Positions 33,818-35,053 of a stretch of 64,000 nucleotides of DNA are shown here, piece after piece. The notes beneath the pieces were generated by a model. It did no database searches. It was given only the letters and a program-made list of their open reading frames with translations, and was not told the origin of the DNA. Source of the DNA: Streptomyces rubrogriseus (lineage in GTDB: Bacteria; Actinomycetota; Actinomycetes; Streptomycetales; Streptomycetaceae); assembly GCF_027947575.1 (NCBI RefSeq), contig NZ_CP116256.1, forward strand, positions 4,588,001-4,652,000, given 5' to 3'. The translations under genes were made by a program, and so were the position numbers. How positions within the stretch are numbered: position 1 is the stretch's first letter; every line of letters starts with the position of its first letter.

Positions 33818-34474
33818 GTGACGACACCACCACCAGGGCTGCGGGAGCGGAAGAAGCGGGCCACGCGCGAGGCGCTGCGCGAAGCGGCGCTGCGCCTGGC
33901 CGTGGAGCGCGGACCGGACCAGGTGCGGGTCGAGGACATCGCGGAGGCGGCCGGGGTCTCGTCGCGCACCTACAACAACTACTTCGCCAGCCGCGAGCAG
34001 GCCATCGTCTCCGCCGTCACCGCGGACCGGGAGGCGCGCATCGCCGCGGCGGTCGCGGCCCGGCCCGCGGGAGTACGCCTGGCCGACGCCGTCACCGAAG
34101 CAGTGGTCGAGCAGTACACGAACACCGGTGAGCGTGAACAGCGGGCGCTGCTGCTGATCACCACCCGGACCGCGCTGCGCGACGCGTTCCTCGACACCAC
34201 GGCCGGCATCGAGCTCCCACTCACAGCGGTGATCGCCGAACGCCTGGGAGACGCCGAAGCCCACCCGGCCCGCGTCCTCGCTGCAAGCGTGACCGCGGCG
34301 GTGCGCATCGCACTGGAAGGCTGGCTGCGGCCTGCCGGGAGCGCGGAGACCGCCGGGAGTCTCCCCGCCGGAGGACTGCTCGTGCCCTCCGGTTCACTGG
34401 CGGACCAGCTCCGCACGGCGCTGGCCCCGCTCGCGCCCGCGTTCGACGCCGCGGAGCAAGGTGGGCAGCGGTGA
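33818..34474 (+). CDS. TetR-family regulator
   Basis: GTG at 33818 (GGAAAG ten bases upstream) gives 218 residues. The DNA-binding domain is clear: ATREALREAALRLAVERGPD, QVRVEDIAEAAGVSSRTYNN, YFASREQAIVSAVTADREAR. The C-terminal part (LLLITTRTALRDAFLDTTAG, VIAERLGDAEAHPARVLAAS) fits the TetR C-terminal domain often seen with xenobiotic-responsive members. It overlaps the next gene, the histone-like ORF, by 4 nt (GTGA), so the two are co-translated. Exact repeats upstream are its likely operators. Confidence 0.88.
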   Translation: MTTPPPGLRERKKRATREALREAALRLAVERGPDQVRVEDIAEAAGVSSRTYNNYFASREQAIVSAVTADREARIAAAVAARPAGVRLADAVTEAVVEQYTNTGEREQRALLLITTRTALRDAFLDTTAGIELPLTAVIAERLGDAEAHPARVLAASVTAAVRIALEGWLRPAGSAETAGSLPAGGLLVPSGSLADQLRTALAPLAPAFDAAEQGGQR

Positions 34475-34950
34475 CACCGACGCGGCTGGGACATCCGCCC
34501 CCTCAACTGCCGCGCGGCTCGGGGATGACCACCCAGCACGCGGGCCCCGGGCGCAGCGGTCGGCAGACCGCCTCGGTCACGAGTGGCTCGCCGTTCAAGC
34601 CCTCCCTCGTCAAAGCGGTGTTCGGGGCCGTGACCCCGATGCACGTCTCCCGGTCGGCCGCGTGGGCCGCCGGGTCGGTGACACGGACGGTGCTGACGGA
34701 GATCGTCCAGGGCGCGAGGACCGGGGCGGCAGCGGCGGGCCGGAAGAAGCTGATTCCCGGGGACCTTCTCTCGGCGATCGACCGGAACGTCGAGCTGGAG
34801 GTGGGCCCTGTCCAGCCGCACGGGGACGGACGGACCGTCGGCAGGGACGACATCCTGGCCGCCACCACGATGCAGTTGTTCGGCGGCGGCCTCAGGCCGC
34901 GCGCTCTCGCCGAAGCCCGCGAGGCGGCTCGGGGGCCTTCGGCCGGCTGA
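34471..34950 (+). CDS. Histone-fold (H2A-like) protein
   Basis: The GTG at 34471 overlaps the TetR stop (GTGA); an alternative ATG lies at 34525. The 159 aa product (141 from the ATG) contains a segment aligning with eukaryotic H2A along the whole fold: alpha-1 FKPSLVKAVFGAV, loop 1 TPMHVSRSA, long alpha-2 AWAAGSVTRTVLTEIVQGAR followed by TGAAAAG, loop 2 RKKLIPG, and alpha-3 DLLSAIDRNVELE. Key H2A features are kept: T-x-E-I in alpha-2, the K-K-x-I-P loop, and the L-x-x-A-I-x-x-x-x-E-L helix. A further helix follows (RDDILAATTMQLFGGGLRP). Bacterial histone-fold proteins are known, but an H2A-like one coupled to a TetR gene is unfamiliar to me. DNA binding is inferred, not shown. Confidence 0.7.
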   Translation: MTPTRLGHPPPQLPRGSGMTTQHAGPGRSGRQTASVTSGSPFKPSLVKAVFGAVTPMHVSRSAAWAAGSVTRTVLTEIVQGARTGAAAAGRKKLIPGDLLSAIDRNVELEVGPVQPHGDGRTVGRDDILAATTMQLFGGGLRPRALAEAREAARGPSAG

Positions 34951-35053
34951 GTGGGTGCGATCGGCATCTGCCGTGTGCATCTCTGGATATTCCGACGATA
35001 ACGCTCGCCGCTAGCTTCGCGGTGACCCTGTCGTGTTCGGTGAAAGGCATCCC

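What the first reader, a model, noticed from the sequence alone, without database searches (positions are those of the whole stretch)
34471..34950. H2A-like histone-fold protein encoded in a Streptomyces operon
Seen: the product can be laid over eukaryotic H2A across alpha-1, loop 1, alpha-2, loop 2 and alpha-3 with about one gap, keeping T-x-E-I in alpha-2, the basic K-K-x-I-P loop and L-x-x-A-I-x-x-x-x-E-L in alpha-3. Known: bacterial histone-fold proteins exist (DUF1931-type and short singlets) but are small and rarely resemble H2A. Inference: a full-length, about 141-159 aa H2A-like protein co-translated with a TetR regulator could be a DNA-organising or DNA-protecting factor, or a histone fold reused as a non-DNA-binding dimer.
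Basis: partly seen in the sequence, partly recalled or inferred. Interest (0 to 1): 0.88.

Follow-up and report, generated by a model that had tools for sequence, protein, structure and literature searches.

The report
Broken copy of Streptomyces histone doublet
The gene really does encode an H2A-like histone fold, but it is a shortened, probably decaying copy of a two-histone protein that is scattered through some Streptomyces genomes, and that parent family is the interesting part.

Summary
The H2A resemblance is real: a profile of 43 N-terminal halves of relatives matches PDB sequences with E down to 8.7e-4, and the 60 rows shown of 178 all contain H2A. But the gene is not a full-length H2A-like protein. 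The other relatives listed are 225-271 aa and carry two histone folds. The window copy keeps fold 1 and only loop 2, helix 3 and tail of fold 2. Against the intact copy at the same locus of a ~95% identical genome (G269) it lacks 353 bp plus a frame-restoring 1 bp inside the gene, and 77 bp before the ATG. That upstream deletion creates the apparent TetR co-translation; in G269 the GTG frame stops at the ATG. This TetR was found in 1 of 111 loci. In G159 the same locus lost fold 1 and has a stop. The family is patchy (47 of 392 genomes of the genus, own included); near-identical copies sit in different surroundings, and 12 of 80 loci carry an IS5-type terminus after the stop.

The parts
34525..34950 (+). 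Internally deleted histone-doublet gene; 141 aa from the family's ATG start, stop TGA 34948-34950
   Evidence: P0001 141 aa, 98% identical, starts here; two profile pieces, 1-94 and 217-259, in the same open frame
34591..34806 (+). Fold 1, H2A-like histone fold (residues 23-94 from the ATG), with loop 2 RKKLIP
   Evidence: family profile matches to H2A; boundaries inferred from the H2A alignment, no structure predicted
34802..34803 (+). Deletion junction: 353 bp present in G269 (linker and, by inference, helix 1, helix 2 and the loop-2 insertion of fold 2) are absent here; TGGG at both ends in G269
34820..34821 (+). 1-bp deletion relative to G269 that restores the reading frame after the 353-bp deletion (net 118 codons)
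   Evidence: alignment; frame
34819..34947 (+). Remnant of fold 2: loop 2, helix 3 and C-terminal helix (DGRTVGRDDILAATTMQLFGGGLRPRALAEAREA)
   Evidence: profile 217-259, E 9e-16; this part of the family aligns to H2B helix 3 - alpha C
34471..34524 (+). In-frame extension from a GTG overlapping the TetR stop; by-product of a 77-bp deletion at 34523/34524 (and 3 bp at 34494/34495)
33818..34474 (+). TetR-family regulator (TetR_N, MftR-type C domain), neighbour, not part of a conserved histone context
34951..34995 (+). Downstream stretch resembling the family's 3' tail (in other loci about the last 16 codons of an IS5-family transposase); the IS terminus itself is not seen here
   Evidence: extent judged by eye

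Best explanation
The gene is a decaying, internally deleted copy of a Streptomyces 'double histone' gene. The intact protein (about 259 aa) carries two histone folds in one chain: an N-terminal H2A-like fold, a conserved linker, and a second histone fold whose end resembles H2B. Inferred, not shown: in the intact protein the two folds pair with each other into one pseudodimer that binds DNA through its basic loops. In the window copy a 353-bp deletion removed most of fold 2 and a 77-bp deletion removed the normal leader and ribosome-binding region, so the product, if made, is a lone H2A-like fold with a short tail. It most likely no longer works as the parent does. The parent gene has spread between Streptomyces as a short isolated segment, in some loci ending at an IS5-family insertion-sequence end.
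For: Shown: the longer relatives aligned have two folds (P0078 passes the Pfam Histone cut-off, 27.1 vs 26.4 bits, with two matched stretches). The same locus in G269 is colinear, about 95% identical and intact. Deletions mapped base by base. G159, same locus, has lost fold 1 and has a stop, so this locus has broken twice in different ways. No other copy in the own genome with the profile up to E = 10. The gene differs more than its flanks (91.5% vs about 95-96.5%), and window residues differ at R34, D35 and A50, conserved in 91-98% of 57 relatives. The 141-aa form is not an assembly error: another record (P0001, S. rubrogriseus, 3 residues different) has it. Fold 1 = H2A-like. Spread; 4 plasmid records.
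Against: The reading frame survived two indels (353 + 1 bp) and persists in P0001, which could mean the short form is still used. dN/dS of the window copy against G269 (0.71 over 94 + 33 codons; one inserted codon, the junction and the last codons left out) lies within the range of seven intact pairs (0.22-0.81 over whole genes), so relaxed selection is not proven; changes are equally many on the intact G269 side. Departures at conserved sites (4 of 64) exceed the median (1) but not the range (up to 13) of the 57 intact rows that define those sites. No structure prediction could be run, so pairing of the folds and DNA binding are inference. IS ends were seen on one side only in most loci.
Confidence: 0.8

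Rival explanations
1. The short form is a working single-fold histone: after the deletion, two H2A-like folds pair as a homodimer and bind DNA, as archaeal histones do. It is a domesticated derivative, not a wreck.
For: Open frame kept through two indels; the same 141-aa form in P0001; strongly basic, pI 11.3; loop-2 RKKL-P-DL kept.
Against: Leader and ribosome-binding stretch deleted; conserved R34, D35, A50 changed; the same locus is a plain pseudogene in G159; no other single-fold relative of this size among the 120 best of 345 hits.
Confidence: 0.15
2. One reading: a full-length H2A-like DNA-organising protein co-regulated and co-translated with TetR.
For: GTG overlaps the TetR stop (GTGA) and is in frame; H2A-like fold confirmed.
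Against: This TetR in 1 of 111 loci; the in-frame overlap exists only because of the 77-bp deletion; not full length.
Confidence: 0.03
3. The family is not H2A-like by descent but a TAF11/TAF13- or SPT3-like histone-fold pair, i.e. a histone fold used in a transcription-factor-like role, and H2A similarity is convergence within the fold. (This bears on the parent family and can hold together with decay of the window copy.)
For: Pfam TAFII28 is matched by 35 of 63 members at E <= 0.01 against 17 of 63 for Histone; TFIID-18kDa is a weak hit for the second fold in P0059 and P0078.
Against: In the six proteins all TAF scores are below cut-off; the 60 PDB rows shown of 178 contain H2A and no TAF; the end of fold 2 aligns with the H2B-type C-terminal helix. 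Ambiguous: hhalign puts helix 2 of fold 2 nearer H4.
Confidence: 0.25

Closest known systems
Streptomycetaceae two-fold histone family (hypothetical proteins; 'histone H3/H4' or 'Histone H2A/H2B/H3...' in some automatic annotations)
   Same: The window gene is a member by sequence: 83% identical to intact P0002 over 59% of its length, with the C-terminal ~40 residues also aligned.
   Different: It lacks about 118 residues: the linker and, by inference, helix 1, helix 2 and the loop-2 insertion of fold 2.
Eukaryotic / giant-virus H2A and H2B-H2A doublets (e.g. PDB 9cvt miniH2B-H2A)
   Same: Fold 1 matches H2A best; end of fold 2 matches H2B helix 3 - alpha C; two folds in one chain.
   Different: Order is H2A-like then second fold, opposite to the H2B-H2A chains matched; identity is low (25% over 71 columns); tails and octamer contacts untested.
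DUF1931 bacterial/archaeal pseudodimeric histones (PDB 1WWI, 1R4V; described in PMC13088155 and PMC12701072, passages seen)
   Same: Two histone folds in one bacterial chain.
   Different: Only 1 of 63 members has even a weak DUF1931 match (E 0.006); this family is basic (median pI 10.5 of 74 loci), mostly about 259 aa, with RKK-L-P and RRTI loop-2 motifs.
Bacterial single-fold histones such as HBb of Bdellovibrio and HLp of Leptospira (PMC10627809, one section and passages; PMC12701072, passages)
   Same: Histone fold in bacteria.
   Different: Those are short singlets; no chain of theirs is among the rows shown.

Membership tests
Streptomycetaceae double-histone family | Homology over fold 1, start at the family's ATG | tested here: met
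   ATG 34525 kept, the leader before it deleted
Streptomycetaceae double-histone family | Second complete histone fold (GAHRFEAG... helix 1, helix 2, RTIGRDD loop 2, helix 3) | tested here: not met
   only loop 2, helix 3 and tail remain
H2A | Sequence-profile match to H2A above other core histones | tested here: met
   family N-half: (hhalign P 0.0014 but probability only 17.6%); window alone only E 0.33
H2A | Pfam Histone (PF00125) gathering score | tested here: not met
   window: no hit up to E 10; of six relatives one, P0078, passes (27.1 vs 26.4)
H2A | Three-helix histone fold in three dimensions, pairing with an H2B-like partner | not testable with these tools
   structure prediction switched off
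H2B (second fold) | Helix 3 plus H2B-type C-terminal helix | tested here: inconclusive
   6 of 7 hits are H2B, but the best (E 0.0031) sums two stretches of one duplicated chain (8.7 and 9.7 each) and single H2B chains have E 0.87-1.1; hhalign P 0.084, and helix 2 is nearer H4 (P 0.006)
DUF1931 pseudodimer | Pfam PF09123 match | tested here: not met
   none; 1 of 63 at E 0.006
   this TetR in 1 of 111 loci; TetR block without histone in G101, G128, G164

The most novel reading that the evidence does not exclude
Streptomyces carry a mobile, eukaryote-like histone doublet: an H2A-like and an H2B-like fold in one chain, forming a DNA-wrapping or DNA-bending pseudodimer, acquired once and then spread between species as a nearly naked gene riding on insertion-sequence ends and plasmids. 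The window strain shows it being lost again.
Probability: 0.25. Interest if true: 0.9.

Novelty: new variant of a known kind. Interest (0 to 1): 0.58.

Why it matters
The papers seen name as bacterial double histone folds the Thermus and Aquifex type (DUF1931; PMC13088155, PMC12701072, passages), which are said to lack DNA-binding residues. A basic, H2A-like doublet in cultivable, genetically tractable Streptomyces, with intact and broken alleles at one locus in close relatives, would let one ask directly whether a bacterium can use a eukaryote-like histone pair, what it does to the nucleoid, and why it comes and goes. The window copy itself matters mainly as a natural loss allele.

Tried and rejected
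Full-length reading: rejected after the alignment with longer relatives. Operon with TetR: rejected. Assembly error as the cause of the short form: made unlikely by P0001. Second copy elsewhere in the genome: none with the profile; three weak hits with the single sequence (E 0.07-2.6) were not followed. Phage origin: no match in 50,697 phage records and none confirmed in viral contigs. Conserved partner genes: none found; after the gene itself the commonest neighbour cluster is in 16 loci. A transposon with two clear ends: not shown. The right end is shared by a minority (12 of 80); in the pairs listed shared DNA mostly begins 17-300 bp before the ATG. An inverted IS remnant lies upstream in L018 and transposase fragments in direct orientation in L012 and L019 (four loci examined for repeats). 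One search also listed inverted matches to the terminus core with up to two mismatches upstream in L012, L014, L021, L046 and L058, not followed. Comparison of the two halves with each other found nothing. dN/dS did not separate decay from constraint.

The gene caller preferred an antisense frame over TetR, so TetR was checked separately. The script stopped with an error after L073; one search covers all 80 loci for the tail, by a loose pattern without a chance control. The searches scored only part of the first-look candidates in most genomes, so their counts may be low. The loci are the best 80 of 96. The 111 loci include some places fetched twice.

Full report
What was checked. The frame at 34471-34950 is there and its translation is as implied. 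Alone it finds no Pfam or NCBIfam family up to E = 10; its only PDB hit up to E = 10 is an H2A (8ua7_C, E = 0.33). So by itself the resemblance is suggestive only.

What it belongs to. The protein search gave 345 relatives, the best 120 listed. One (P0001, S. rubrogriseus, 141 aa, 98%) has the same form. The other 119 listed are 225-271 aa and match only 46-65% of the query. In the 11 of them that I aligned with the window, extra residues lie in the middle, about 118 in the 258-261 aa members. They have two histone folds: Pfam sees TAFII28/Histone in the N-terminal part and, in the two variants without a loop-2 insertion (P0059, P0078), Histone/CBFD/TFIID-18kDa in the C-terminal part. P0078 passes the Histone cut-off (27.1 vs 26.4 bits). 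Across 63 aligned members, 35 match TAFII28, 17 Histone, 3 CBFD_NFYB_HMF and 1 each Bd3614_N, DUF1931 and TFIID-18kDa at E <= 0.01. A profile search with 15 members gave 449 proteins, of which I saw 120.

Which histone. A profile of the N-terminal halves (43 sequences) hits 178 distinct PDB sequences at E <= 1; the 60 shown are all H2A or H2A-containing fusions, best E 8.7e-4. A profile of the C-terminal halves (44 sequences) has 7 hits at E <= 10, 6 of them H2B, aligned over helix 3 and the C-terminal helix. The best (E 0.0031) is a duplicated H2B chain whose two stretches have 8.7 and 9.7 each; single H2B chains have 0.87-1.1. Against eight typed histones and 2000 shuffles of each, the N profile scores human H2A best (17.3 bits, 0 shuffles as high); H3 (9.8) and H4 (6.1) also beat all their shuffles. 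The C profile scores human H2B best (11.9 bits, 0 as high), then yeast H2B (10.7, 2 as high) and H4 (8.8, 2 as high). hhalign agrees for fold 1 (H2A P = 0.0014, probability 17.6%; next best P 0.07) but not for fold 2 (H4 helix 2 P = 0.006, H2B P = 0.084). I therefore call fold 1 H2A-like and fold 2 a histone fold of uncertain type with an H2B-like end. Pairing of the two folds is inferred from known double histone folds (PMC13088155, passages); no model could be made.

What happened in the window. G269 is colinear with the window over about 18 kb, with indels, at about 95-97% identity in all blocks over 300 bp, and has the intact doublet between the same TetR and the same small, by eye secreted, protein. 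Base by base the window lacks 353 bp between TGGG microhomologies at 34802/34803, one more base at 34820/34821 that restores the frame, and 77 bp directly before the ATG at 34523/34524. In G269 these 77 bp hold the leader GCAGGGAGCGCTTCCTCC, also seen before the ATG of relatives (28 loci listed; a leader pattern in 34 of 80 loci). In G269 the frame from the TetR-overlapping GTG is a separate 45-codon frame ending in a TGA that overlaps the histone ATG. The 159-aa frame and the 'co-translation' are thus products of the upstream deletion.

Decay or reuse. The gene is 91.5% identical to G269 over fold 1 while flanks are about 95-96.5%. Polarised changes: 9 non-synonymous and 4 synonymous on the window side, 9 and 2 on the G269 side, 1 unresolved. 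dN/dS between the two is 0.71 (94 + 33 codons), within the 0.22-0.81 seen over whole genes in seven pairs of intact relatives; an eighth pair, L102 and L011, first 94 codons only, has 0.93. This does not decide. The window differs at 4 of 64 columns that are at least 90% conserved (R34, D35, A50, I61); the median for the 57 intact rows is 1, the maximum 13. G159, with the same TetR and secreted-protein neighbours, has lost fold 1 and carries a stop and frame changes in fold 2. G101, G128 and G164 have the TetR block with no histone in the stretch fetched; G300 has the secreted-protein side only within the 4 kb fetched. So of the three genomes seen with a histone at this locus, one copy is intact and two are broken in different ways. 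The frame-restoring base and the persistence in P0001 are the best evidence for continued use of the short form, and I keep that at 0.15.

Distribution and movement. Matches, own genome included: 5 of 61 relatives, 47 of 392 genomes of the genus, 15 of 200 in the family (3 of 17 genera), 45 of 293 in the order (1 of 9 genera), 8 of 394 in the class (1 of 137 genera) and 4 of 296 in the phylum (1 of 198 genera). The named loci are mostly Streptomyces, with Kitasatospora, Actinacidiphila, Yinghuangia and one unclassified actinobacterium. Four plasmid records carry it, one in part, no phage record, no confirmed viral contig. Of the 80 named loci fetched (best 80 of 96), 73 meet a simple three-motif test for an intact doublet. 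In the 70 pairs listed, copies 94-98% identical in DNA mostly share only 17-300 bp before the ATG and 8-72 bp after the stop; three pairs share longer flanks (L016/L093, L031/L034, L013/L094). In 12 of 80 loci a terminus-like sequence follows within 90 bp of the stop. The tail reads as the last codons of a transposase (TNIAACTLICYRRLAK in L011) of the IS5 family (NF033580, below its cut-off; PF01609, above). L011's tail aligns at 94% over 52 bp to the end of an 855-bp element present in three copies over 99% identical in G219. How the gene moves is not shown; a matching left end was not established.

Is it in print? Six searches combining Streptomyces, Actinobacteria, Actinomycetota or actinomycete with histone terms: four returned no paper, two returned 32 and 9,874 of which 20 each were listed, none of them on such a protein by title and start of abstract. 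Four papers on prokaryotic or double histones have no occurrence of Streptomyces, Actinobacter- or Actinomycet- in the main text (passages seen, and one section of PMC10627809). That paper reports 416 bacterial histone-fold proteins in a supplementary table that I could not see, so members may be listed there. Some databases already label members 'histone H3/H4' or 'Histone H2A/H2B/H3'. Alva and Lupas 2019 is not held.

Verdict. The locus holds a broken copy of a patchily distributed, apparently mobile two-fold histone gene. That family deserves study; this copy is mainly a loss allele.

Noticed in passing
L011, L012, L015, L016, L018, L020, L021, L022, L033, L036, L073, L089, within 90 bp after the histone stop: A sequence like the terminus of an IS5-family element (ATGAGATGGCCTC, loose pattern) follows the histone gene; in L018 an inverted remnant of the element also lies upstream (49-nt arms, 88% complementary).
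   Followed up: partly
L045, L047, L048, L058, L060, L063, L069, L071, L074, L081, L085 and others: A second type of the family (VTDLPFKPQ..., about 67-74% identical to P0005) often has the same gene about 230 bp upstream (a cluster in 16 loci, some fetched twice), so this type has a more stable surrounding.
   Followed up: no
G269:C1:95180 versus G000:C1:4622525: The colinear region lies 95 kb from the contig start in G269 but in the middle of the G000 contig; either a contig is permuted or the block has moved.
   Followed up: no
window about 31850, 32657 and 34523: Three places where G269 carries 65-77 extra bases relative to the window within a few kb; only the one before the histone ATG was examined.
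   Followed up: no
P0005 residues about 183-217; P0059 and P0078: Many members carry a ~34-residue proline-rich insertion in loop 2 of fold 2; two 225-aa variants lack it and score higher with Pfam Histone.
   Followed up: partly
L165 (G159:C1:7535000-7540000): Same locus with a different break: fold 1 missing and a stop in fold 2, a separate loss.
   Followed up: yes
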